NCBI RefSeq assembly: GCF_001541345.2
Contig: NZ_LMVL02000002.1
Location: 124,001-188,000, forward strand
Length of the DNA stretch: 64,000 nt
Origin: Gillisella vitis
Lineage (GTDB): Bacteria > Pseudomonadota > Alphaproteobacteria > Rhizobiales > Rhizobiaceae
Reading direction: 5' to 3'
Positions 27,465 through 37,860 of the stretch are shown here, one piece after another. Below the pieces are notes generated by a model. It was not told where the DNA came from and did not search any database. It worked only from the letters and a program-made list of their open reading frames with translations. Each line of letters starts with the position of its first letter. Position 1 is the first letter of the stretch. The position numbers were made by a program, and so were the translations under genes.

Positions 27465-27481
27465 AATGGCGGACAGGGAGG
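27465..27481. repeat. Left att core, 17 bp
   Basis: Identical to 37769-37785. It is the displaced 3' end of tRNA-Ser, left at the far end when the element inserted. It also encodes N-G-G-Q-G of the attP-spanning gene in frame. Confidence 0.92.
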
Positions 27482-27734
27482 TGATGTAGATACCCTACAA
27501 AATCAATCCGCTAATCTGTCCACCCCTGCCAGCGGTGCCATTGATAAAATTGAAGAAAATGGAGCAACGTCTAACCGCGTTCAGGCCGCCGCACTCTGGC
27601 TTTCACAGCACCGTGACACGGTTGGAAGCAATGTCATTGCCGTCCTTAAAGAACTCTTCTCTCTTAGCAACCTTGAGGCGATAGAGGCGGCAAAGCAGGC
27701 CCATGCGCTGGTCTATGGTGGCCGCCATGGGTGA
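27465..27734 (+). CDS. 3' part (84 codons from 27480) of a gene split by integration at attP
   Basis: The frame is open from 27447 to TGA at 27732-27734, yet contains no ATG, GTG or TTG, so it has no standard start in the integrated state. Read through the 17-bp core it continues in frame from ATG at 37742 at the other end of the element, giving a 98-residue protein in the circular form. The C-terminal half looks like a real helical domain: RVQAAALWLSQHRD, VIAVLKELFSLSNLEAIEAAKQAHALV. The last 8 bp overlap the start of the next gene (27727), typical of this element's coupled genes. Function unknown; a small DNA-binding regulator, excision factor or packaging helper are options. Confidence 0.8.
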   Translation, partial: NGGQGGDVDTLQNQSANLSTPASGAIDKIEENGATSNRVQAAALWLSQHRDTVGSNVIAVLKELFSLSNLEAIEAAKQAHALVYGGRHG

Positions 27735-28464
27735 AGCGTTTCCGATCTCGGCGGCGCTTGCCCGCAATCTTGCCAACCGCCCGAACATGTCGCCGTCCGA
27801 TGTTGCCATCATGAATGGCTATCTGACGGGCGCTATGCCGACACAGCCCGCGAGCAAACAGCCGACAAGCTTCAACATCCTAAGCCCGCACCTTCGCCGG
27901 ATGCAGCGCCTTGCGGGCCGCAAGTGGCAACGCTCGCCGGATCGTGCCGCCTCGATGGCTCGCAAGCGCAAGCTGGGCGGATCAAGCGGGATGCCCGACA
28001 CCATCCGTCACCACTACACGGAAGGCGAACGCGCCGTGCTGACGGTGATTGCTGGCGAGGTGAAGCACCACGGCCTGTGTGATCTTGCGGTGGATCGTAT
28101 CGCGGCTATTGCTGGCCTGAGCCGCACCACAGTGCAGAACGCTATCCGTGAAGCCCGCGCCCTTGGCCACCTGTCTGTAGAGAGCCGCCCGCGCAAGGGA
28201 CAGAAGAACCTCACCAACCTTGTGCGGATTGTCTCGCCTGAATGGCTGGCATGGCTCAAGCGCGGGCCTTCGCTGGCCAGACAGATAGGGTTCAAAGATT
28301 TCCACCCCACGAAGAACCAAGATAAAAACAAATACAAGAAAGAATATACGAGAGGGCAGAACCGCACCGATGGCGCTTACCGCAACCGCTACATGGGCTT
28401 GGGAGAGGGAGAGAGCAGCCCTGTTGCGGGCAGCAACGACCAGCGAGGGCGCAGCAATGGCTAA
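27727..28464 (+). CDS. Phage helix-turn-helix protein
   Basis: 245 residues from ATG at 27727, overlapping the stop of the attP-spanning frame by 8 bp. Residues 105-160 form a winged helix: YTEGERAVLTVIAGEV, CDLAVDRIAAIAGLSRTTVQNAIREARALGHLSVESR, like the N-terminal domains of phage replication initiators and of MarR-type regulators. The C-terminal tail is polar and basic (NQDKNKYKKEY). It sits two genes before TerL, where a small terminase is expected, so TerS is a second possibility. Overlaps the HNH gene start by 8 bp. Confidence 0.75.
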   Translation: MGEAFPISAALARNLANRPNMSPSDVAIMNGYLTGAMPTQPASKQPTSFNILSPHLRRMQRLAGRKWQRSPDRAASMARKRKLGGSSGMPDTIRHHYTEGERAVLTVIAGEVKHHGLCDLAVDRIAAIAGLSRTTVQNAIREARALGHLSVESRPRKGQKNLTNLVRIVSPEWLAWLKRGPSLARQIGFKDFHPTKNQDKNKYKKEYTRGQNRTDGAYRNRYMGLGEGESSPVAGSNDQRGRSNG

Positions 28465-28888
28465 ATGGCCGTACAACACCATCCAATGGCAAAAGCTGCG
28501 ACTGGCGAAGCTGACGGCCACGCCACTGTGCGAGCCGTGCAGGATGCGCGGGCAGGTGACCGTTGCTAAGGCAGTGGACCACATGACGCCGATCAATGCG
28601 GGCGGCGATCCGTTCCCGCCGCTCGATGGCCTGACCTCGATGTGTGAGCGTTGCCACAACGAGAAGACGGCTGCGAATGACCGTAAGCACAAGAAACCAT
28701 TCGCCCGGAAGGTCAAAGGTTTCGATGCATCGGGCAATCCGGCGGACCAATCCGACGCTTGGCATAGGGGTGGGGGCGGGTCAAATCACCAGAACGAGGC
28801 CGGGCGCGGACCGATGTCCCAGATAGGAATATACTTAGTTTCAGAGGGGCAAGCCTTTGAAGAAAATGACGAAACAGGATTTTCATAA
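28457..28888 (+). CDS. HNH endonuclease
   Basis: 143 residues. Zinc-knuckle cysteines CEPC (25-28) and CERC (63-66) enclose the HNH core: VDHM (D41, H42), an intervening loop and HNEKT (H67, N68). Phage HNH nucleases next to terminase genes take part in DNA cleavage for packaging with HK97-type TerL; in cf-PICIs they also stand before the terminase. The stop overlaps the TerL start (TAATG). A longer frame from 28370 is open but lacks support. The last 25 residues are unrelated to HNH. Confidence 0.9.
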   Translation: MAKWPYNTIQWQKLRLAKLTATPLCEPCRMRGQVTVAKAVDHMTPINAGGDPFPPLDGLTSMCERCHNEKTAANDRKHKKPFARKVKGFDASGNPADQSDAWHRGGGGSNHQNEAGRGPMSQIGIYLVSEGQAFEENDETGFS

Positions 28889-30513
28889 TGGCTACTCGGG
28901 GCATTGGTGCAAAGGCACTTTCACAACGCGGCAAGGTCGAAGTGCGCGAGGTCTTGCCCTGGAATGAGCCGGGCTTGTCCCGTGCGGGCCGGGTGATTGC
29001 CTTTCTGGAAGACTTGCCGATTACGGCGGGTAAACTGGCCGGGTCGAAAATGACGTTGCGGCCCTGGCAGTGCGAATTTATCGAGGAGGTCTATGCGGAG
29101 AACGGCGAAGGCCGCCGCCCGATCCGCACGGCGGTGCTGTCCATGGCCCGCAAGAACGGCAAGACGCAGCTTGCGGCGGGCCTTGCGCTTTGCCACCTGA
29201 TGGGGCCGGAAGCCGAGCCGCGCGGCGAGGTCTATTCCGCAGCCCTGACCCGGGATCAGGCCGCCAAGCTGTTTCAGGAAATGCGCGCCATCCTTAACGA
29301 GCACCCGGAATTGGATGACCGCGCCAATATCATCCAGTTCAACAAGCAAATCGAGGTGCTGACCGGCGACGGCGCGGGTTCGATCTATGCGGCGCTGTCG
29401 GCTGATGCCGGTTCGAAAATGGGTCTGTCGCCGTCCTTCGTGGTCTATGACGAGCTGGGCAGTGCGCCAAACCGCGATCTGTTTGACGCGCTGGATACAG
29501 CCACCGGCGCACGCGACAACCCGCTGATGATCTGCATTTCCACCCAGGCCGCCGCCGACCATCATGTATTTTCTGAGCTGATCGATTACGGAACCCGGGT
29601 CAATTCCGGCGATATCCAAGACCCAAGTTTCCACCTGACGCTCTATGCAGCGCCCGCAGATGCCGACCCCTGGAGCCGCGAGGCGTGGATTGCCGCAAAC
29701 CCGGCGCTGGCCGATTTCCGCTCGCTGGAAGACGTGGAGCGGCAAGCCTCCCAGGCCCGGCTTGTTCCGTCCAAGGAAAGCGCGTTTCGAAACCTGATCC
29801 TCAATCAGCGGGTGTCCGCCGTGTCGCGCTTTATCCATAAGGCCGAATGGGACCGCTGTAATGGTGTGGTTGATCTGGCCAGCCTTGCGGGCCGCGAATG
29901 CTATGGCGGCCTTGATCTGTCCGGCTCACGCGATCTCACGGCCTTTGTGCTGGTGTTTCCGCAGGAAGGGCGGCGGTTCGATGTGGTCTGCCAGTTCTTC
30001 ATGCCAGAGGCGAATATTGCCGAGCGCTCCAATGAAGACCGCGTGCCGTATGAGCTTTGGGCGCGGCAAGGCTTCATCACGCTTATTTCCGGCTCCACCA
30101 TCGATCCCGGCTTTGTGGCGCAAGCCATCATGCAGGCGGCGCAAACCTATGATCTGCGCACCGTGGCTTATGACCGTTGGCGGATTGAGGATTTGAAGCG
30201 CGAGCTTGGCCTGTTCGGCGGCACTGTGCCGCTGGAGCCGTTCGGGCAGGGCTATAAGGATATGTCGCCCGCTGTGGATACGCTGGAGCGCAACGTGGCC
30301 GAACAGCTCTTGCGCCATGGCGGCAATCCTGTGCTGAATATGTGTTCGTCAAACGCTGTTGTTACCCGCGACCCAGCCGGAAGCCGTAAGTTGGACAAGA
30401 GCAAGGCCACCGGCCGCATTGACGGGCTGGTGGCTTTGGCGATGGCATTGCAAGTCAGCGGGCGTCATGAGCCGGAGGTGCTTCCGGCTTGGGTGTTGGA
30501 TGCGATGGTATGA
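28888..30513 (+). CDS. terL: Large terminase subunit (TerL)
   Basis: 541-residue packaging motor. ATPase: adenine/Q region LRPWQCEF (57-64), Walker A ARKNGKT (87-93), Walker B FVVYDEL (184-190). RNase H-like nuclease: first acidic motif GGLDLSGSRDLTAF (340-353) and the later DRWRIEDLKREL (about 428-439). Full length for an HK97/YmfN-like terminase, with no disruption. It is separated from the portal and capsid genes by the toxin-antitoxin and regulator block, unlike the usual ter-portal-protease-capsid order. Confidence 0.94.
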   Translation: MATRGIGAKALSQRGKVEVREVLPWNEPGLSRAGRVIAFLEDLPITAGKLAGSKMTLRPWQCEFIEEVYAENGEGRRPIRTAVLSMARKNGKTQLAAGLALCHLMGPEAEPRGEVYSAALTRDQAAKLFQEMRAILNEHPELDDRANIIQFNKQIEVLTGDGAGSIYAALSADAGSKMGLSPSFVVYDELGSAPNRDLFDALDTATGARDNPLMICISTQAAADHHVFSELIDYGTRVNSGDIQDPSFHLTLYAAPADADPWSREAWIAANPALADFRSLEDVERQASQARLVPSKESAFRNLILNQRVSAVSRFIHKAEWDRCNGVVDLASLAGRECYGGLDLSGSRDLTAFVLVFPQEGRRFDVVCQFFMPEANIAERSNEDRVPYELWARQGFITLISGSTIDPGFVAQAIMQAAQTYDLRTVAYDRWRIEDLKRELGLFGGTVPLEPFGQGYKDMSPAVDTLERNVAEQLLRHGGNPVLNMCSSNAVVTRDPAGSRKLDKSKATGRIDGLVALAMALQVSGRHEPEVLPAWVLDAMV

Positions 30514-30557
30514 GGGAGAAATTGCGCTTTCCATTGCGTCGAGCACAATAAATTCAC

Positions 30558-30586
30558 TTGACTGAGTGCGTTAGTTACATACATTA
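30558..30586 (+). promoter_or_regulatory. Probable promoter of the toxin-antitoxin pair
   Basis: TTGACT (30558-30563) and ACATTA (30581-30586) are 17 bp apart. The ATG of the toxin follows at 30592 with no ribosome-binding site, so the transcript would be nearly leaderless. GTTA and TAAC (30570-30573, 30585-30588) form a short dyad over the -10 region. Confidence 0.45.
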
Positions 30587-30591
30587 ACCCC

Positions 30592-30966
30592 ATGCAAACG
30601 GTTTCAGAACTAAACTCATTCCGTAAATCGGCAATCGCGGCTGGCATGACAGACGACGAGATAATCTCGCTTGTCAATTATCTTGCCAAGAACCCGGAAG
30701 CTGGCGACGAAATCCGTGGTACGGGCGGCTGTCGCAAGCTTCGCTTTGCAATTGCTGGAAACAATAAGGGTAAAAGTGGTGGCATTCGCGTTATCACTTT
30801 TTTCACGGGGTCAAATATGCCGGTATTCTTGATAGCGGCATTTGCGAAAAACGTGAAGGTCAGCCTGACAAAAGCGGAACAGAACACATTGAAGTCCGTT
30901 ACAGAACTTATAGTGAAAGAGTACTCCAATAGGGTTACTCGGTTGAAAGTAGGAGCAACAGCATGA
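30592..30966 (+). CDS. RelE/HigB-type toxin
   Basis: 124-residue mRNA interferase-like toxin of a type II system. Recognisable RelE-family stretches: LAKNPEAGDEIRGTGGCRKLRFA, GKSGGIRVITFF and PVFLIAAFAKNVKVSLTKAEQNTLK, the arrangement seen in toxins paired with NadS-type antitoxins. Toxin comes before antitoxin, as in HigBA. Overlaps the antitoxin by ATGA. Lower GC than the structural genes, suggesting separate acquisition. Likely stabilises the element or acts in inter-phage competition. Confidence 0.88.
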   Translation: MQTVSELNSFRKSAIAAGMTDDEIISLVNYLAKNPEAGDEIRGTGGCRKLRFAIAGNNKGKSGGIRVITFFTGSNMPVFLIAAFAKNVKVSLTKAEQNTLKSVTELIVKEYSNRVTRLKVGATA

Positions 30967-31298
30967 GCAAACAAGCATTCGACATGATCCATGAGGGTCT
31001 GACCGAAGCGCTGGCTGTCGCCCGTGGCGAGGCGGAGCCTTTTAACCTTCATGTGCCGGCAGAGCTTGACGTTAAGGAAATTCGCGCGGCCACAGGCATG
31101 ACGCAAAAGGATTTTGCATCGACGTTCGGGTTTGGCCTCGATCAATTGAAGCAGTGGGAGCAAGGTCGCGCGCGTCCGGTTCAGGCTATGCGCGCATATC
31201 TTTTGCTTATCAAAGACAACCATAGGTACCTTATCAAGGCGCTTCGCAGACTTCACGAGGCTCCAATGCCCGAACCCGCATTGTGCGCGGCAATGTAA
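30963..31298 (+). CDS. NadS/HigA-type antitoxin
   Basis: 111 residues with a helix-turn-helix at about 36-85: DVKEIRAATGMTQKDFASTFGFGLDQLKQWEQGRARP, the classic NadS sequence. It should bind the toxin through its N- or C-terminal arm and repress the operon through the HTH. Coupled to the toxin and followed at once by a strong terminator. Confidence 0.88.
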   Translation: MSKQAFDMIHEGLTEALAVARGEAEPFNLHVPAELDVKEIRAATGMTQKDFASTFGFGLDQLKQWEQGRARPVQAMRAYLLLIKDNHRYLIKALRRLHEAPMPEPALCAAM

Positions 31299-31306
31299 AA
31301 TATCAA

Positions 31307-31328
31307 CCCCGCTTTTGCGGGGTTTTTT
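31307..31328 (+). terminator. Rho-independent terminator after the toxin-antitoxin pair
   Basis: CCCCGC (31307-31312), loop TTTT, GCGGGG (31317-31322), then TTTTTT. It also overlaps the 3' end of the convergent XRE gene (stop at 31327). Confidence 0.9.
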
Positions 31329-31554
31329 ATTTGCTTTTTTTTAGCCTGACCCCCGCCCCCTCACCATTTTCATCAACAAAAACTACCCCTGTCGCCTCAA
31401 GAGCGGCTTTTAGCGCATCTACCGTGCGATCCTTCAATTCCTCACCAGCTTCAAATCTCGAGACCGTTCCAGGGGCAACTTTGGCAAGCTGCGCAAGTTC
31501 ACGCACTCCCAAACCAAGGGCGGCCCGAGCCATCTTGCATTGAACTGGTAACAT
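31327..31554 (-). CDS. Small XRE-family repressor
   Basis: 75 residues; nearly all is one HTH domain: MARAALGLGVRELAQLAKVAPGTVSRFEAGEELKDRTVDALKAALEATGVVFVDE. It is the only minus-strand gene of the element and diverges from the rightward cluster at 31646, with two operator-like sites between. This is the classical position of a lysogeny-type master repressor. The ending GAGVRLKK is common to small rhizobial XRE proteins. Confidence 0.87.
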   Translation of the reverse strand: MLPVQCKMARAALGLGVRELAQLAKVAPGTVSRFEAGEELKDRTVDALKAALEATGVVFVDENGEGAGVRLKKSK

Positions 31555-31556
31555 TT

Positions 31557-31571
31557 TCGATACACCGTTAT
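31557..31571. promoter_or_regulatory. Degenerate operator next to the XRE start
   Basis: Contains GATACAC and CGT in the same order as the perfect dyad at 31606 (TGATACACTGTATCA), differing mainly in the right arm. It lies 3 bp upstream of the XRE gene, fitting negative autoregulation. Confidence 0.4.
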
Positions 31572-31605
31572 AATTTTGGTTTGACGCTCCGATAATTCAT
31601 CGGTA

Positions 31606-31622
31606 TTGATACACTGTATCAA
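31606..31622. promoter_or_regulatory. Palindromic operator TTGATACA-C-TGTATCAA
   Basis: Perfect 8-bp arms around one central base in the 91-bp gap between the XRE repressor and the rightward gene at 31646, placed 24 bp before that start. It is the expected size for an XRE dimer site. Confidence 0.75.
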
Positions 31623-31645
31623 AAACGAATATCAGGAGCAACGTG

Positions 31646-31981
31646 ATGGGCTACCATTTTCGTGAACAGGAAAGCTATGTCCGCATTGTCGAACTGACCC
31701 CCAGACTGCGAAAGCGGATCGAGCAGGCGATTGAGTATTTGGTTTCAATCCTCGACCAGTTCGACGGCGACGAAAACTTGGAAGACGGAGGGGACAACGA
31801 ACCATCATTGGGCTGGACTGCACGCGGCCCGGAGGCCGAGCGTTTCGATTTTCAAGACCGCGAGTTGGACGACGCCGACAACGAAGACGGTGGCGATGAT
31901 GAACCGACGCTAGGGTGGACCCATGACGGCGATATGGGGCAGACATTCGACAATGACGAGCGCGAATTGGAAGGGGCCTGA
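31646..31981 (+). CDS. Very acidic repeat protein of unknown function
   Basis: 111 residues from ATG at 31646, 9 bp after AGGAG; GTG at 31643 is also possible. Residues 1-40 form a basic/hydrophobic helical region (LRKRIEQAIEYLVSILDQ). From about 41 on, more than a third of residues are Asp or Glu, with a duplicated unit EDGGDNEPSLGWT / EDGGDDEPTLGWT. First gene right of the XRE operator, so probably expressed on derepression. Acidity like this occurs in DNA-mimic inhibitors, but no such function is proven here. Confidence 0.75.
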   Translation: MGYHFREQESYVRIVELTPRLRKRIEQAIEYLVSILDQFDGDENLEDGGDNEPSLGWTARGPEAERFDFQDRELDDADNEDGGDDEPTLGWTHDGDMGQTFDNDERELEGA

Positions 31982-31982
31982 C

Positions 31983-32186
31983 ATGCCGGAAGCCTTTGAG
32001 CTGATTGACCCCCTCCATGAAGTTGATGCCCTCATTCATGCTCTATGGATGGCGGCGGCGGCGCTTGACGACGAACCCCATCGTCGCGCCATACGCCAAC
32101 TCGCTGAAAACGCGGGGGATAAGCTTCAAGCGGTGATTGCCGATTGTGAGCAGATGGAAAAAGGCGATTTCCAGGGTGTTGGTTAA
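31983..32186 (+). CDS. Small helical protein of unknown function
   Basis: 67 residues, starting one base after the preceding stop. Mostly amphipathic helix: FELIDPLHEVDALIHALWMAAAALDDEPHRRAIRQLAENAGDKLQAV. It looks like a dimerising or adaptor protein. Not recognised. Co-transcribed with the acidic repeat protein. Confidence 0.65.
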   Translation: MPEAFELIDPLHEVDALIHALWMAAAALDDEPHRRAIRQLAENAGDKLQAVIADCEQMEKGDFQGVG

Positions 32187-32271
32187 TTCATGAGCCTTTT
32201 TAAACCGTGGTGCTTGCAGCGATTTATTTATCGTGGTATCTAACACTAATTGAAACGTGGGAAGAGCCACT

Positions 32272-32997
32272 ATGCAGCCCCAATATATCTTGACGACTTT
32301 CACACCCGCTGAAGCGGAAAAAATCACAACTCTAAGCACTGTCGCTCAACGAGATTGGCGGCGTAGAGAGTTTCTTCCAACTGTGGATGGACACGCGCGT
32401 TTTGATGCATTCGCATTGGCTGAAATCTGGGTCATGAAAATGCTCTCTGATCGTGGCGTGGGGCCACAAGCGTCAAAGGAAGTTGCGAACTGGTGTGCAA
32501 TCGGCATTCTTTGGCATGCTTTAAAGAATGTAGACGCCTATGAAGGCGATCATCATAAGACGTTTGATTGGTATCCAGAGAAGCATCGTCCCAAGAATGA
32601 TCCTGAGGAAGCTGCTAATTTTAGACAACTCTGTGAGGACGCGGGCTGGAATATACCCGAAAATGTTGATTTCGATTTTACGTGGCACTCAAAATCGCAG
32701 TGGTTGACTAAACAAATTTTCCGTCTCCGTGGCTACCCCAAGATTATCCCCGCTAGATACTTCATTTGGTGGGCTGATGGTTCACATCTTTGGCATGATA
32801 ATCTTGCTGAGGCATTTTCGAGCCACTCCAGTGAGGCTCGCTACGCGGGGCCGGTCATCGTCCTTGATCTGGAGGCTCTTGCGACGACGCTCAGTCAGCG
32901 CGCAGGGCGAGCCTTAGTTCACGTTGAATTTCCCGTCGATGGGGAGGGAAATCTGGTGTCTCCGATTGAGTATGGTGCGCCCGTACCGTTGACTTGA
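32272..32997 (+). CDS. Putative regulator with MerR-like N-terminal HTH
   Basis: 241 residues from ATG at 32272 (GGAAGAG upstream). Residues 10-65 (FTPAEAEKITTLSTVAQRDWRRREFLP, then HARFDAFALAEIWVMKMLSDRGVGP) have the helix-turn-helix plus wing pattern of MerR/AlpA-type proteins. The remaining 170 residues are rich in Trp and His (WHALKNVDAYEGDHHKTFDWYPEKH) and not recognised. Lowest GC of the element. AlpA-like activators control many satellites, so a role in induction is a reasonable guess only. Confidence 0.65.
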   Translation: MQPQYILTTFTPAEAEKITTLSTVAQRDWRRREFLPTVDGHARFDAFALAEIWVMKMLSDRGVGPQASKEVANWCAIGILWHALKNVDAYEGDHHKTFDWYPEKHRPKNDPEEAANFRQLCEDAGWNIPENVDFDFTWHSKSQWLTKQIFRLRGYPKIIPARYFIWWADGSHLWHDNLAEAFSSHSSEARYAGPVIVLDLEALATTLSQRAGRALVHVEFPVDGEGNLVSPIEYGAPVPLT

Positions 32998-33206
32998 GGC
33001 GAAGAATTTCCCGCGCCGTTCATATGAGGCCCTGCCAGCGGGCCAATATCGATAAGCAGCTCTCCGGGGCGCGGGACAGTAAGAACCACCGGACAAGGGC
33101 TGTGCGCTGGTACCATTTCCGCCGAAAACGGCAAACAACAGACCATACAACACGACTTATGAACTTGGTTCCTGACAGGCTTTCAACCTCCTTAAAGGAA
33201 CAAACC
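32998..33206. other. Leader region before the capsid operon
   Basis: 209 bp without a convincing gene. It holds two small hairpins (GGCCC/GGGCC around 33026-33042, and GCCG-AAAA-CGGC around 33122-33133) and the ribosome site AAAGGA for the capsid gene. The late promoter, and possibly a packaging (cos or pac) site, would be expected here, but neither can be identified by eye. Confidence 0.4.
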
Positions 33207-34448
33207 ATGAAAAAGCTTATTGAACTGCGCGAAAAGCGGGCTGCCAAGCTAACTGAGATGCGCGCCCTCCACGCCAAGGACAAGCTGGAGACTAACGAAG
33301 AACAGCGTTTCAAGGCGCTGGAAAGTGACGTTACCGAGATTGATGGCCAGATTGCCCGCGAGGAGCGCATGGCCGCTTTTGAGCGTGAAGAGCAGCGGGC
33401 GGAAAGCGTCTCTGGTGACAACGCTTTTTCCCGCGAGCTGCGCGGTTATTCCGTTGCCAATGCCATCAACGGCGCGTTGACGGGCCGCCTCACAGGCCGG
33501 GAGGCGGAAGTGGATCAGGAATTGAAGCGCGGACGCGAAAGCCGTTCTGGCGCTTCTGGCATTCATCTGGCCATTCCTTCCGAAATCTTGCTGGGCATGG
33601 CCGAACAGCGCTCGCAGACAGTCGGCTCCAATGCGGCGGGCGGTTATACCGTTGCCACCAACCTCGCAGCCGTTGCGGATCGTTTCCGCCCGGCTTTGAA
33701 GGTGGAAGGTATGGGGGCCACGGTGCTGCGCGGTCTGACTGGCTTTCTGGACCTGCCAAACCTTGCCACCAGCGGCACGGCAAGTTGGGTGGGTGAAGAT
33801 GGCAACGCCACCCGTTCCAGCGCCTCTTTTGAAAAGGTGTCGATGGCCCCCAAGACCGTGACGGGTGAATACCGCCTTTCGCGCCGCCTGATGCTGCAAT
33901 CCAGCGCTGCGATTGAAGATATTCTTCGCCGCGATCTGGGTTTTCTGTTGGCGCAAGGGCTTGACCTGGCCGCCATCACCGGCACGGGTACCGCGCCCGA
34001 ACCTCTGGGCCTACTGTCCACGCCGGGCATTGCCAAAGTCACCACGGATACGGATTTCTCTGACACCACGGCAAACCTGATTGCCGAGCTGGAGCTGGAT
34101 GACGTGACCGGCACGGCGGCATTCCTCACCAACCCCACGGTGATGAAAGCTGTGCGCAAGATGAAGGATGATGACGGACATGTGATGCCCGTGGGCGAGC
34201 TGTTCCACAATGGTCGGGTGGAAACCTCCACGCAGGTTCCCGCCACGCTGGGCGCAAACAACGATAAATCGGCGCTGATCTATGGCCAGTGGGGCGAGCT
34301 TTATCTGGGCTATTGGTCGGCGGTGGATATTCTGATCAACCCCTATCACCCGGATGTTGCCAGCAATGGCGGTGCACTTCTCCACGCTTTCCTTGATGCC
34401 GATGTGGCCGCCCGCCACCCCAAGGCATTCGCCTACGCGGAGATTTGA
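33207..34448 (+). CDS. HK97-family major capsid protein
   Basis: 413 residues from ATG at 33207, 7 bp after AAAGGA; the frame is open upstream to 32994 but that part is not coding-like. Residues 1-65 are the coiled-coil delta (scaffold) domain, rich in Lys and Glu (ELREKRAAKLTEMRAL). The mature shell starts after about 100-110 and has GGYTVATNLAAVADRFRP, RSSASFEKVSMAPKTVTGEYRLSRRLM and the C-terminal AFLDADVAARHPKAFAYAEI. The prohead protease two genes on would remove the delta domain. Confidence 0.93.
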   Translation: MKKLIELREKRAAKLTEMRALHAKDKLETNEEQRFKALESDVTEIDGQIAREERMAAFEREEQRAESVSGDNAFSRELRGYSVANAINGALTGRLTGREAEVDQELKRGRESRSGASGIHLAIPSEILLGMAEQRSQTVGSNAAGGYTVATNLAAVADRFRPALKVEGMGATVLRGLTGFLDLPNLATSGTASWVGEDGNATRSSASFEKVSMAPKTVTGEYRLSRRLMLQSSAAIEDILRRDLGFLLAQGLDLAAITGTGTAPEPLGLLSTPGIAKVTTDTDFSDTTANLIAELELDDVTGTAAFLTNPTVMKAVRKMKDDDGHVMPVGELFHNGRVETSTQVPATLGANNDKSALIYGQWGELYLGYWSAVDILINPYHPDVASNGGALLHAFLDADVAARHPKAFAYAEI

Positions 34449-34453
34449 ACCCT

Positions 34454-34729
34454 ATGATCTCGCTCGCTGACGCAAAGGCTTATATCCGCGTTGATTATGA
34501 CGACGAGGATTTGATGATTGAACGCCTCATTGCGGCGGCGGGCAATCACCTGAAATCGATTGGCGTCAATATGGACGCCGATCCCCTGCCGCCATCGGTC
34601 GAACTCGCACAATTGCTGCTGGTTGGCCATTTCTTTGATAACCGGGACGCAACCGGCGCAACCACCACCTCCGCCATTGATTTTGGCGTGGATCGGCTGA
34701 TTGCCCCACACCGGGAGCAAGGCATATGA
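34454..34729 (+). CDS. Gp6-like head-tail connector
   Basis: 91 residues from ATG at 34454. The sequence ISLADAKAYIRVDYDDEDLMIERLIAAAGNHLKSIG is the characteristic N-terminus of HK97 gp6-like connector proteins, which form a ring under the portal and receive the tail. Its presence without any tail gene suggests a head that docks a helper's tail. Overlaps the protease by ATGA. Confidence 0.9.
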   Translation: MISLADAKAYIRVDYDDEDLMIERLIAAAGNHLKSIGVNMDADPLPPSVELAQLLLVGHFFDNRDATGATTTSAIDFGVDRLIAPHREQGI

Positions 34730-35262
34730 GCGGGTTTGAACGTCGCGGCCTGGCCATCGAGCTTCGCGCCAAGGGCCGCCGCCTTGAAGGTTATGCCGCC
34801 ACTTTTGGCCGTTCTGCCGACATTGGCGGGCGGTTTATGGAAACCATCGCGCCGGGAGCTTTTTCCGGCTCGTTGCGTTCCAAGGCCGATGTTTTGGCAC
34901 TGGTGGATCACGATCCGGGCCGGGTTCTGGGCCGCACTCGTTCCGGCTCGCTACGCCTCTCCGAAGACAGCCGGGGTTTGGCCTTCGATCTGGACCTGCC
35001 GGAAACAGTGGCGGGCCGCGATGTGCTGGCCTTGGCCGAACGCGGCGATCTTGGCGGCATGTCCTTCGGCTTCACCGCCCTGGACGAGCAACGCGATGGC
35101 GACCGCCGCGAACTTCGCGCCGTGGAGCTGCACGAAATCAGCGTGGTCATGGCATGGCCCGCCTATGACGGGACTGTCATTCAGGCCCGTTCCTTCACAT
35201 TCCCAAGCCCGTTTCGCGACTATGCCGAGCGGGCCTTGCGCCTTCTGGAGATTTCCAAATGA
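34726..35262 (+). CDS. HK97-type prohead protease (U35)
   Basis: 178-residue serine protease that matures the capsid. Catalytic His is in VDHDPGRVLGR (H62) and Ser in GDLGGMSFGF (S113), with the family start LRAKGRRLEGYAATFGRSADIGGRFMETIAPGAF. Coupled by ATGA on both sides. It lies after, not before, the capsid gene, which is unusual for HK97-like modules. Confidence 0.94.
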   Translation: MSGFERRGLAIELRAKGRRLEGYAATFGRSADIGGRFMETIAPGAFSGSLRSKADVLALVDHDPGRVLGRTRSGSLRLSEDSRGLAFDLDLPETVAGRDVLALAERGDLGGMSFGFTALDEQRDGDRRELRAVELHEISVVMAWPAYDGTVIQARSFTFPSPFRDYAERALRLLEISK

Positions 35263-36461
35263 GCCTGTTTGACCGCTTCAAACGGCGTGAGCAACGCGCC
35301 GCCATTAAATCGGATGATCCTTATCTGGGCGAGTTTTTCGGTCTTCGCGGCGGTATTGGCGGTTATGTCGATCCGGGCCGCGCCTCTGGCATTGCCGTGG
35401 CTCATGCCTGCATTGCCATTGTCAGCCAGAACCTTGCCGCTATGCCGCTCAACCTCTACCGCCGCGCCGACAACGGCGGGCGCGAACGGGCCACAGACCA
35501 CCCGCTCTACAACGTGTTGCATGACATGGCCAACCCGACCATGACAGCCTATGAAGCCCGCGAGGCGCTGATTGCCTCGCTGATGATAGCAGGCAATGCA
35601 TTCGCCCGGCTCGAATACAATGGCCGTGGGCAGGTGGCCGCGCTCTATCCGCTGGATGCCGCGCAAGTGGCGGTGGAGCGGTTGGACAGTGGCCGCTTGC
35701 GCTATCGCGTTGGCTCTCGCGTCTATCTGCAAGAGGAGATGCTTCACCTTCGCTATCGGCTGGGCCGGTGTGGGGTTATGGGCCTCTCCCCTATTCAGAT
35801 TGCCCGCGAAACCTTCAACCTCGCCCTGACCCAACAGGAACAGGCCGGAAAGCAGGCGCGTAAAAGCTTCCGGGAAGAGGGGGCTTTGATGTTCCCGCAA
35901 GCCCTCGGCAAGGAACAGCGCAATTCGGTTTTGGATAGGCTGGAAAGCAAACTGAATTCTGATCTTTCCACCTCTGGTATTCTCGTCATGGACGGTGGCA
36001 CGGATTTTAAATCCTTCTCGTTTTCCTCAAAGGATGCCGAGTTTCTGGATAGCCGCAAGCTCGCCAATCTCGACATTTGCCGTATCTGGAACGTGCCGCC
36101 GACCTCGGTGGGCATTGTCGATAACGCCACCTATTCCAACAGCGATCAGGAAAGCCGCGCCCTTGTTGTGCGCTGCCTTGCCCCCATGGCCAAACGTGTA
36201 GAGCAGGCTATGAATGCCGCCTTGCTGACCACCGAGACCCGCAAGACCCTGTTCATTGAGCACGATCTCGCGGGCCTGCTGCGTGGCGATATGAAGGCCC
36301 GTTATGAGGCATATCAGATTGGCCGCAATTGGGGCTGGCTGTCTCCAAACGAAATTCGTGGCTGGGAAAACCTGCCATCAATCGAAGGCGGCGACGAATA
36401 TCTCTCGCCGCTCAACATGACCACGCTGGGCCAGCGCCAGCCGGAAGGGGAGGGCGTGTAA
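35259..36461 (+). CDS. HK97-family portal protein
   Basis: 400 residues. Family landmarks: an N-terminal SLFDRFKRRE; VAHACIAIVSQNLAAMPLNLYRR (48-70); HPLYNVLHDMANPTMTAYEAREAL (88-111); GNAFARLEYNGRGQVAALYPLDAAQV; and DICRIWNVPPTSVGIVDNATYSNSDQESRALV, the clip/crown region. Complete. Forms the dodecameric DNA entry channel and docks TerL. Shares one base with the next start. Confidence 0.95.
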   Translation: MSLFDRFKRREQRAAIKSDDPYLGEFFGLRGGIGGYVDPGRASGIAVAHACIAIVSQNLAAMPLNLYRRADNGGRERATDHPLYNVLHDMANPTMTAYEAREALIASLMIAGNAFARLEYNGRGQVAALYPLDAAQVAVERLDSGRLRYRVGSRVYLQEEMLHLRYRLGRCGVMGLSPIQIARETFNLALTQQEQAGKQARKSFREEGALMFPQALGKEQRNSVLDRLESKLNSDLSTSGILVMDGGTDFKSFSFSSKDAEFLDSRKLANLDICRIWNVPPTSVGIVDNATYSNSDQESRALVVRCLAPMAKRVEQAMNAALLTTETRKTLFIEHDLAGLLRGDMKARYEAYQIGRNWGWLSPNEIRGWENLPSIEGGDEYLSPLNMTTLGQRQPEGEGV

Positions 36462-36649
36462 TGGCGGGCAAAGTCGCAATGATCAAACAGGTGGATGCAA
36501 AGCGCCTGTTTAAAGCCGCGATTGAGGCGGGCTTTGCCGCCGCCCGGATCACGGTTCACCCGGATGGGCGGATTGAAGCCAGTGCATCGCTCAATGAGAG
36601 CGCTGCAAGCCCGGACACCAAAAACTCATGGGATGACGTTCTGAAATGA
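36461..36649 (+). CDS. Small protein between portal and integrase
   Basis: 62 residues, overlapping the portal stop (TAATG) and the integrase start (ATGA). One helix-rich part (QVDAKRLFKAAIEAGFAAARITVHPDGRIEASA) and a polar tail. The KAAIEAGF...ITVHPDGRIE segment resembles small rhizobial phage proteins that precede integrases, possibly DNA-bending or excision factors. Not proven. Confidence 0.7.
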   Translation: MAGKVAMIKQVDAKRLFKAAIEAGFAAARITVHPDGRIEASASLNESAASPDTKNSWDDVLK

Positions 36650-37740
36650 AAAAGAAGCGCCGAAACGGTTTGCCTGACCATTGCACGCTGGTGATTGACC
36701 GCCATAAAAAGCGGCGTATCCGCTTTCGTGCAAAGGGTGTGGACACCTATTTGCCTTATCCGCCGCTTGGTGCGGAGTTTGAGGCCGCCTATGCGCAAGC
36801 CTTGGCGGGTGTGACCGAATGGCGCGCAAACGTTGGTATCAGCAAAACCAAGCCCGGCTCTTTCGATGCCCTGACTGTTTCTTATTACCGCTCGCCCGAA
36901 TTTTCGGGCTTGCGTGACAGCACACAGCAAACCTATCGCCGCATTATCGAGCGGTTCCGTGAGGCCCATGGCAAGCGCATGATCCGCGATTTGCGCCGCG
37001 AGCATATCAAGGCGCTGGTGGGGTCGATGGCGGATAAGCCACAGGCGGCAAACCGCTTGCTGTCCCTTCTCAAGATCATGTTGGGCCACGCGCTTGATAT
37101 TGGCTGGATACCTGCCAACCCGGCCCAAGGCCTCAAAGGCTTTTCAAAGAAGACCAAAGGTTTCCATACGTGGACGGAATTGGAAATTGCCGCCTATGAA
37201 GCCCGCCACCCGGAAGGCTCACAGGCCCGCCTTGCGCTTGCACTGCTTCTCTATACCGCACAACGCCGTAGCGACGTGGTGGCCATGGGCTGGGAGAAGA
37301 TCAAGGGCAAACACATTGTTGTCAAACAGGTGAAAACCGACGCCGAGTTGGATCTGTTCATGCTTCCGGCGCTGACAGACGCAATCCGCCCTTTGCCTCG
37401 CGACAAGCCAACATTCCTCACCACCGCATTCGGCAAGCCCTTCACCCCCGCAGGTTTCGGAAATTGGTTCCGCGAGCGCTGCAATGAAGCGGGGCTTGAA
37501 AACTGTTCGGCTCACGGTCTGCGCAAAGCAGCGGCCCGGCGCATGGCAGAAGGCGGAATGAGCGGCGACATCATCAAGGCCGTAACAGGCCACACCGACC
37601 TAAAACAGGTCTCTGTTTACACCGCAGCGGCAAACCAAGCCATCCTCGCAGAGAAGGGCCTCAAGGCCATCGCGGGGAAGAAAAAGCGAACAAATTCTGT
37701 CCAACCTGTCGAAAAAGTTGGACAAACGAAAGGCGATTAA
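36646..37740 (+). CDS. int: Tyrosine-family integrase
   Basis: 364 residues. The N-terminal arm-binding part is short and basic; the SAM-like core-binding domain is about 65-165; the catalytic domain holds R207 (AQRRSDVV), HGLRK with H290 and R293, [12 protein letters not shown] and the nucleophile Y325. It inserts the element at the tRNA-Ser 3' end. Its stop is 28 bp from the right att core, and the attP-spanning gene starts one base after its stop. The integrase is the last gene of the capsid operon rather than having its own unit. Confidence 0.95.
37698..37724. repeat. TGTCCAAC-N11-GTTGGACA inverted repeat at the int 3' end
   Basis: Perfect 8-bp arms (37698-37705, 37717-37724) 45 bp from the att core. 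TCTGTCCA recurs at 27515-27522, 34 bp from the left core, so after excision the motif flanks attP on both sides. It may be arm-type integrase or Xis binding sites. No T-run, so not a normal terminator. Confidence 0.45.
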
Positions 37741-37741
37741 T

Positions 37742-37785
37742 ATGGAAAATCAACATGTTGTTGAAAACAATGGCGGACAGGGAGG
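37742..37785 (+). CDS. 5' part (14 codons plus GG) of the attP-spanning gene
   Basis: ATG at 37742, one base after the int stop, encodes [14 protein letters not shown] and then enters the 17-bp core. In the circular element the next codon is completed to GGT and the frame goes on at 27480-27734. In the integrated state it reads instead into antisense tRNA-Ser and beyond to 38101, making a non-native tail. See the 3' part at 27465. Confidence 0.78.
37769..37785. repeat. Right att core, 17 bp, at the tRNA-Ser 3' end
   Basis: Same 17 bp as 27465-27481. It covers the CCA end, discriminator and 3' acceptor strand of the tRNA, so insertion leaves the tRNA intact. Confidence 0.92.
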
Positions 37786-37860
37786 GATTCGAACCCTCGG
37801 TACGCTTTCACGCACACACGCGTTCCAGGCGTGCGCCTTAAACCACTCGGCCACCTGTCC
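37771..37860 (-). tRNA. tRNA-Ser (anticodon GGA)
   Basis: 90 nt including encoded CCA. Acceptor strands GGACAGG and CCTGTCC pair fully; the anticodon stem CACGC/GCGTG encloses loop CTGGAAC with anticodon GGA; a long variable arm (GTGCGTGAAAGCGTAC region) and a T-arm with GGTTCGAATCC complete a class II serine tRNA. It is the integration site of the element to its left. Confidence 0.97.

What the first reader, a model, noticed from the sequence alone, without database searches (positions are those of the whole stretch)
27465..37785. A gene that spans attP: broken when the element is integrated, whole only in the circular form
ATG at 37742, one base after the integrase stop, encodes 14 residues and enters the 17-bp att core. 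The other copy of the core, at 27465-27481, is in the same frame, and that frame runs on to TGA at 27732-27734 with no start codon (ATG, GTG, TTG) of its own. Joined as in attP the two halves give a clean 98-codon gene whose last 8 bp overlap the next gene, the same coupling style as the rest of the element. In the integrated state the 5' half reads into antisense tRNA and the 3' half cannot be started. Integration therefore acts as a genetic switch. Mycobacteriophage BPs-type integration-dependent immunity also places attP inside a gene (its repressor), but here the gene sits between the integrase and the terminase block of a tailless satellite; I know of no described case like this.
Basis: partly seen in the sequence, partly recalled or inferred. 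Interest (0 to 1): 0.95.

Follow-up and report, generated by a model that had tools for sequence, protein, structure and literature searches.

The report
Gene spanning a satellite's attachment site
A small phage-like element in a soil-type bacterium carries a gene that is complete only when the element has popped out of the chromosome as a circle, where it links the integrase gene to a replication-type gene; the same layout was recently described in archaeal viruses, and here it recurs across a group of bacterial elements.

Summary
The 17-bp core lies at 27465-27481 and 37769-37785. The right copy is entered in frame from an ATG one base after the integrase stop; the left copy continues that frame for 89 codons without ATG/GTG/TTG and ends inside the next gene's start. 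It is not chance: of 11 further domain-bearing elements with both ends located, 10 have an in-frame start on the other side, at four tRNA targets; the eleventh has a separate bridge. In 39 elements the frame predicted from the integrase side alone runs a median 82 codons past the core, against 15 in the other frames; its stop abuts a gene start in 23 of 39 against 7 of 78. Those next genes hit replication families in 18 of 24. Best reading: excision joins integrase, bridge and replication gene into one coupled operon. The kind is known: haloarchaeal pleolipoviruses have it (PMC7911831), and SNJ2 was dissected by experiment (PMC13107129). New here are the bacterial setting and breadth. No circle reads or expression data were available.

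The parts
36646..37740 (+). tyrosine integrase, 364 aa
   Evidence: Pfam Phage_integrase 1.4e-18; PHROG integrase 3e-41
37742..37785 (+). 5' part of the bridge gene: ATG plus 8 codons up to the core (9 codons), then the core itself
37769..37785 (+). att core, right copy
   Evidence: 17-bp identity with 27465-27481
37771..37860 (-). tRNA-Ser(GGA), integration target
   Evidence: ARAGORN
27465..27481 (+). att core, left copy
27465..27734 (+). 3' part of the bridge gene, 89 codons plus TGA, no ATG/GTG/TTG
27482..27575 (+). leader part of the 3' half: open frame with little codon-position bias among relatives; holds a candidate arm site
27576..27731 (+). conserved ~52-residue helical domain (PHROG 24797, function unknown)
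   Evidence: 1.2e-08; third-position excess among relatives; model with helices 33-49, 57-65, 69-88, pLDDT 85-91 for residues 41-80 but 69.5 over the whole half
37698..37704 (+). candidate arm-type site TGTCCAA inside the 3' end of int
37718..37724 (-). candidate arm-type site, inverted partner
27517..27523 (+). candidate arm-type site TGTCCAC (one mismatch) in the leader of the bridge gene
27727..28464 (+). next gene, winged-helix replication-initiation-like protein; overlaps the bridge gene by 8 bp
   Evidence: PHROG 391 'replication initiation O-like' 9.7e-07 and PHROG 15967 (unknown function) 1.7e-47
28370..36461 (+). payload: HNH, terminase large subunit, RelE-like toxin and antitoxin, capsid, head-tail adaptor, head protease, portal, and ORFs without family hits

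Best explanation
It is a real protein-coding 'bridge' gene that contains the attachment site. In the excised circle, ribosomes leaving the integrase gene restart one base later, translate the bridge gene across the core and the arm-site region, and end inside the start of a replication-initiation-like gene, so integrase, bridge and replication gene form one tightly coupled operon. Integration cuts that operon at the core: the integrase and the first nine codons stay at one end against the tRNA gene, and the domain and the replication gene sit about 10 kb away without the start codon and without the upstream coupling. The layout thus ties replication, and the bridge protein, to excision. Shown by sequence: frame, conservation, overlaps, domain under purifying selection, replication-type neighbour. 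Inferred: co-transcription, translational coupling, silence in the integrated state. The role of the domain itself is unknown; a small DNA-binding or replication accessory protein is the guess.
For: Twelve domain-bearing elements with both ends located, the window included: 11 have an in-frame start 0 to 57 bases from the stop of the ORF that ends the other side, at tRNA-Ser(GGA), Ser(GCT), Val and Phe (in L033 that ORF, 368 codons, was not identified as an integrase). In 39 elements the frame chosen from the integrase side alone runs a median 82 codons past the core against 15 for the other two frames (Mann-Whitney p 1.2e-9), and its stop lies within -10..+6 of the start of an ORF of at least 80 codons in 23 of 39 against 7 of 78 (Fisher p 1.5e-8); with at least 35 codons as well, 22 of 39 against 3 of 78. 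The elements are related, so p is only a guide. Next genes were scanned for 24 elements (22 of the 23 that pass, plus L026 and L062; L271, a trivial 13-codon frame, was not scanned; L144 and L145 are near-copies): 18 hit replication initiation, primase or helicase PHROGs, some weakly (weakest best hit 1.2e-4, L059); 4 hit only PHROG 15967, which the window's own next gene also hits; 2 hit neither (L035, L053). Domain differences by codon position 943/832/1425. One integrase clade with 100/100 support holds 20 bridge elements of 24; outside it 3 of 12. In SNJ2 nonsense mutations in the attP-spanning orf26, as in orf19-25, left excision intact but stopped the rise in copy number (PMC13107129).
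Against: No read data, no transcript, no protein. The leader between core and domain shows almost no codon-position bias (655/647/726), so its amino acids are hardly conserved. Some elements have possible starts after the core or just before it (L023, L032, L043, L045, L129 TTG or GTG; L043 an ATG completed by flanking DNA; L042 an ATG inside the core). 16 of 39 elements fail the next-gene test; 2 of these, L026 and L062, pass in a different frame that also has a start. Of 11 contigs with a core-like stretch after a related integrase and no tRNA, 0 have the start-bearing frame stopping within -10..+6 of a gene start. The promoter scan found none near either end, but fewer than one was expected, so it says little. 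Near-cognate codons exist in the left frame. In SNJ2 the initiator alone supported an unstable plasmid, and ORF26 was likened to a toxin.
Confidence: 0.68

Rival explanations
1. The open frame across attP is a by-product. The core is fixed by the tRNA and the arm sites sit at fixed distances, so a frame stays open by DNA constraint; the domain protein is started inside the leader from a rare codon.
For: The leader has little codon-position bias. TGTCCAA-like sites recur at fixed offsets in 27 elements: 49 against 5.9 expected on the integrase side, 32 against 8.1 on the other, by base shuffles; the motif was picked from the window and kin, so the excess is partly built in. CTG and ATT codons lie in the left frame.
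Against: The frame linked to the integrase-side start is the long one and the one that abuts the next gene far more often than the other frames. Leaders and 5' parts differ in length yet stay in phase. L044 lacks the domain but keeps the bridge to the next gene's ATGA.
Confidence: 0.17
2. A BPs-like lysis-lysogeny switch: the bridge protein is a repressor or anti-repressor whose activity depends on integration.
For: attP lies inside a gene, as in BPs (PMC4557955, abstract).
Against: Here the start is lost, not the tail end; the bridge protein differs between elements (PC4-like in L068, no domain in L044), while coupling to replication-type genes persists.
Confidence: 0.07
3. What matters is transcription only: as in Tn916, a promoter near the integrase reads through the joined ends, and the bridge frame merely avoids untranslated RNA and early termination.
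For: Tn916 conjugation genes are expressed only after circularisation (PMC11658703 passages); in SNJ2 the operon transcript starts inside int (PMC13107129 section 24).
Against: Would not by itself explain the close or overlapping start and stop codons at both ends in many elements or purifying selection on the domain.
Confidence: 0.2

Closest known systems
attP-embedded coding sequence of haloarchaeal pleolipoviruses (PMC7911831) and the SNJ2 orf26 / excision-dependent replication operon (PMC13107129)
   Same: Coding sequence begins just after the integrase gene, contains attP, ends at or over the next gene, is whole only in the circle; lengths and sequences vary between elements; in SNJ2 it belongs to a replication operon.
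   Different: Archaeal viruses, a rolling-circle Rep and CxxC-motif neighbours; here bacterial elements with capsid or other payloads and initiator, primase or helicase neighbours. Homology of the bridge proteins between the two groups was not tested.
Mycobacteriophage BPs integration-dependent immunity (PMC4557955, abstract)
   Same: attP inside a gene, so integration changes the product.
   Different: In BPs the repressor loses 33 C-terminal residues and the shorter form is the active one; here the start is lost.
Tn916 circularisation-dependent expression (PMC11658703, passages)
   Same: Genes at one end are expressed from the other end only after excision.
   Different: Transcriptional; no gene across the joint was described in the passages seen.
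SGI1 S004-repA (PMC7826253, passages)
   Same: A leader reading frame translationally coupled to a replication gene of an excisable element.
   Different: Nothing in the passages seen places attP within S004.
Ralstonia phage RSS0 ORF13 (PMC3816273, passages)
   Same: attP (dif) lies within an ORF.
   Different: C-terminal truncation on integration; host XerCD.

Membership tests
pleolipovirus-type attP-embedded bridging gene | starts just after the integrase stop on the same strand | tested here: met
   ATG 37742, one base after the stop
pleolipovirus-type attP-embedded bridging gene | contains the att core in frame and is split in the integrated state | tested here: met
   no normal start in the left frame
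pleolipovirus-type attP-embedded bridging gene | ends at or over the next gene | tested here: met
   8-bp overlap if the next gene starts at ATG 27727
pleolipovirus-type attP-embedded bridging gene | next gene is a CxxC-motif protein | tested here: not met
   next gene is a winged-helix initiator-like protein
pleolipovirus-type attP-embedded bridging gene | made into protein and needed for replication of the circle (SNJ2) | not testable with these tools
   needs a bench test
BPs-type integration-dependent immunity | attP in the repressor gene with C-terminal change | tested here: not met
   the start end is separated; the left half has no Pfam hit at 0.01 and one PHROG hit, 24797, of unknown function
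tailless capsid-encoding satellite (cf-PICI-like; defining features recalled) | integrase, terminase, capsid, protease, portal and head-tail adaptor, no tail genes | tested here: inconclusive
   10,304 bp between cores; head and packaging hits; no tail family among the 15 different ORFs searched there, other short ORFs not searched
tailless capsid-encoding satellite (cf-PICI-like; defining features recalled) | induced and given tails by a helper phage | not testable with these tools
   no experiment

The most novel reading that the evidence does not exclude
A clade of tyrosine integrases in Alphaproteobacteria builds its attachment site, core and arm sites together, into translated sequence, so that excision itself assembles a coupled integrase-bridge-replication operon. 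Bacterial elements and archaeal viruses would then have reached the same excision-gated replication lock independently, and different small proteins have been fused onto the bridge in different elements.
Probability: 0.55. Interest if true: 0.75.

Novelty: new variant of a known kind. Interest (0 to 1): 0.62.

Why it matters
An integrated element that fires its own replication is likely to harm its host and itself. A gene that is physically complete only after excision would be a simple lock against that, with no repressor needed. Finding the layout in bacteria, in most members of one well-supported integrase clade and at several tRNA targets, suggests a general design rather than an archaeal oddity, and makes it testable in soil bacteria that can be cultured. 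It also means that annotation of chromosomes will miss such genes, because they are not whole there.

Tried and rejected
Chance open frame: rejected by the comparison of frames. An intact natural copy of the domain-type gene in phage or plasmid records: no match at E 0.01; IMG/VR gave 4 domain loci, in none of which the integrase was detected. One IMG/VR contig, L196, shows an uninterrupted 83-codon frame from the integrase stop through a tRNA-Arg-like core, but no gene start abuts it (next ORF of at least 80 codons 71 bases on). Fold search of the domain model: 0 matches at E 0.001 or better. Promoter scan: none found, fewer than one expected. Empty-site check with the left flank: 2 of 29 other genus genomes had a partial match, not used.

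Domain loci not settled: of the 15 further ones (L033) gave both ends, 9 showed no tRNA in the stretch held, 5 a tRNA but no matching core. L022 and the loci and 30 other than L219 and L220 were read for their left frame only; L220 and its integrase side (L054, start in frame with the core) lie on two contigs and were not counted. These neither support nor oppose.

Rows dropped before the 39-element count: L057 and L058 (copies of L032 and L026); L048 (copy of L035) was on the skip list but had no left core anyway. Of 165 loci with an integrase stop, 80 had a tRNA within 500 bases and 29 a left core copy of 15 bases or more; of 27 further tries, 12 gave one. Core spacing in the 27 elements is 6.6 to 12.0 kb, favoured by the 10-kb flank; one search reached further. 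Some of these left copies may be false (L056 and L072, at 6.6-6.7 kb, and L088 and L055, about 3 kb from the right core, are the least sure). In the tree the labels follow; L026 and L062 were labelled bridge although they fail the nearest-start rule, L271 none although its 13-codon frame passes; 3 of 39 rows were left out by the program.

Five annotated phage or plasmid records with integrases 30-39% identical: the next annotated gene starts 53 to 267 bases on or lies on the other strand; attP was not located in them, so this is weak evidence that they do not bridge.

Literature: 10 full-text searches found the archaeal cases and, in the listings and passages seen, no bacterial report of this layout; most subscription papers are not in the library.

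Full report
What is there. The window carries a 10.3-kb element between two 17-bp cores, at the 3' end of a tRNA-Ser(GGA) gene. It encodes an initiator-like protein, an HNH protein, terminase, a RelE-like toxin with antitoxin, capsid, head-tail adaptor, head protease, portal and integrase. The nearest integrases in the tree are from elements of Rhizobiaceae. DNA to the right of the element has its best-covered plasmid matches in Shinella (23% covered at 79%), though Sinorhizobium gives more records (84 of 165).

The left frame has no ATG, GTG or TTG. The right part starts one base after the integrase stop; the left part ends inside the start of the next gene. The halves were compared by phase only and were not joined.

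Relatives. The left half was found in 22 of 394 genomes of the family, the window's own included, and with a profile in 14 of 397 of a draw from the order, again with its own, and in 5 of 39 genomes carrying related integrases. Where both ends could be located, the other side has an in-frame start and a short 5' part: MENQHVVEN (window), MKNQHLVEL, MVTENKD, MRKVVG, MENQSLEKE, MGNQWFTKE, MENQYVGKE, MAHLEK, MTTLRHK, MNNHKGKGK, and MEKDSNTKGL at a tRNA-Phe with a 53-bp core, 41 bases after a 368-codon ORF that was not identified (L033). That is 11 of 12 domain-bearing elements. The twelfth, L035, has a separate 43-codon bridge and, further on, a domain gene with its own ATG. The nearest relative in DNA, a metagenome-assembled genome, shows the two parts on two contigs (L219 and L047, about 92% identity), with no tRNA gene found beside the right part; it was not counted.

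Beyond the domain. Other elements with related integrases have different left-end genes but the same layout: 247 codons in L061, 144 in L053, a PC4-type protein in L068; bridges followed by primase- or helicase-like genes in L051, L074 and L144. L044 has no domain, yet its bridge ends in the ATGA of the next gene. To test this without choosing frames by eye, the frame with the start nearest to the integrase stop was taken in 39 elements: median 82 codons past the core against 15, and stop next to a gene start in 23 of 39 against 7 of 78, or 22 against 3 if at least 35 codons are asked for too. Two further elements, L026 and L062, bridge in a frame whose start is not the nearest. In a tree of 36 integrases one fully supported clade holds 20 bridge elements of 24, from Rhizobiaceae to Sphingomonadaceae; outside it 3 of 12. 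Against a wider spread: of 11 contigs with a core-like stretch after a related integrase and no tRNA, 0 meet the same criterion, and five annotated records with 30-39% identical integrases show no annotated bridge (attP not located there).

Selection. Among ten relatives the domain shows a clear excess of third-position differences (943/832/1425), the leader hardly any (655/647/726). The closest pair, window and L219, has pN/pS 0.043/0.231 in the domain and 0.113/0.316 in the leader. TGTCCAA-like sites, likely arm sites (inference), lie in the end of the integrase gene in many of 27 elements and in the leader at about +50 and +102 from the core. So the leader is probably translated but looks constrained mainly as DNA: much of attP is overlaid by coding sequence.

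Mechanism. The simplest account is an excision-built operon from integrase through the bridge to replication. In the integrated state the downstream part has lost its start codon and its upstream neighbour. Coupling and silence are inferred. Support by analogy comes from SNJ2: excision forms an operon holding int and the attP-spanning orf26; a plasmid-borne ORF26-GFP fusion gives a stable protein; nonsense mutations in orf19 to orf26 leave excision intact but stop the rise in copy number (PMC13107129, section 24 read in full; passages). The same paper notes that its initiator alone supported an unstable plasmid and likens ORF26 to a toxin, so the bridge protein there may serve upkeep rather than replication as such.

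Known or new. The kind is known: PMC7911831 noted attP-embedded coding sequences in several pleolipoviruses in 2021 (section 3.7 read in full, passages of abstract and discussion). I found no bacterial report in the ten searches listed. The case here is a bacterial variant with another replication module, shared by most members of one integrase clade, and with different domains fused to the bridge.

Noticed in passing
L023 (G352) versus window: Integrase 86% identical and bridge half 55% identical, but no tblastn match at 1e-3 to the window's initiator-like, HNH, terminase, capsid or portal proteins: the payload seems exchanged behind a conserved integrase-bridge module.
   Followed up: partly
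30592-31298: RelE-like toxin and MqsA/HTH-type antitoxin pair inside the element, with a further small ORF at 31327-31554 on the other strand.
   Followed up: no
L046 around 11127 and 324; L047 around 2500: In two elements of this group no tRNA gene was found beside the right core although the core is tRNA-Ser-like.
   Followed up: partly
L043 around 636-640: Flanking chromosomal bases complete an ATG directly in front of the core, so in this integrated copy the left half might be started.
   Followed up: no
L068 630-995: Bridge gene carries a PC4-type domain (Pfam PF02229, 5.8e-11).
   Followed up: no
L211 1001-1075: A related domain frame runs through a tRNA-Thr gene in the sense direction.
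   Followed up: no
L007, L012, L016, L022: Domain frames of four loci continue upstream through what looks like antisense tRNA-Phe (recognised by eye); only L012's element (L033) was followed to its other end.
   Followed up: partly
37696-37726: A 12-pair inverted repeat at the end of int, scored as terminator-like on the minus strand, coincides with the two candidate arm sites.
   Followed up: partly
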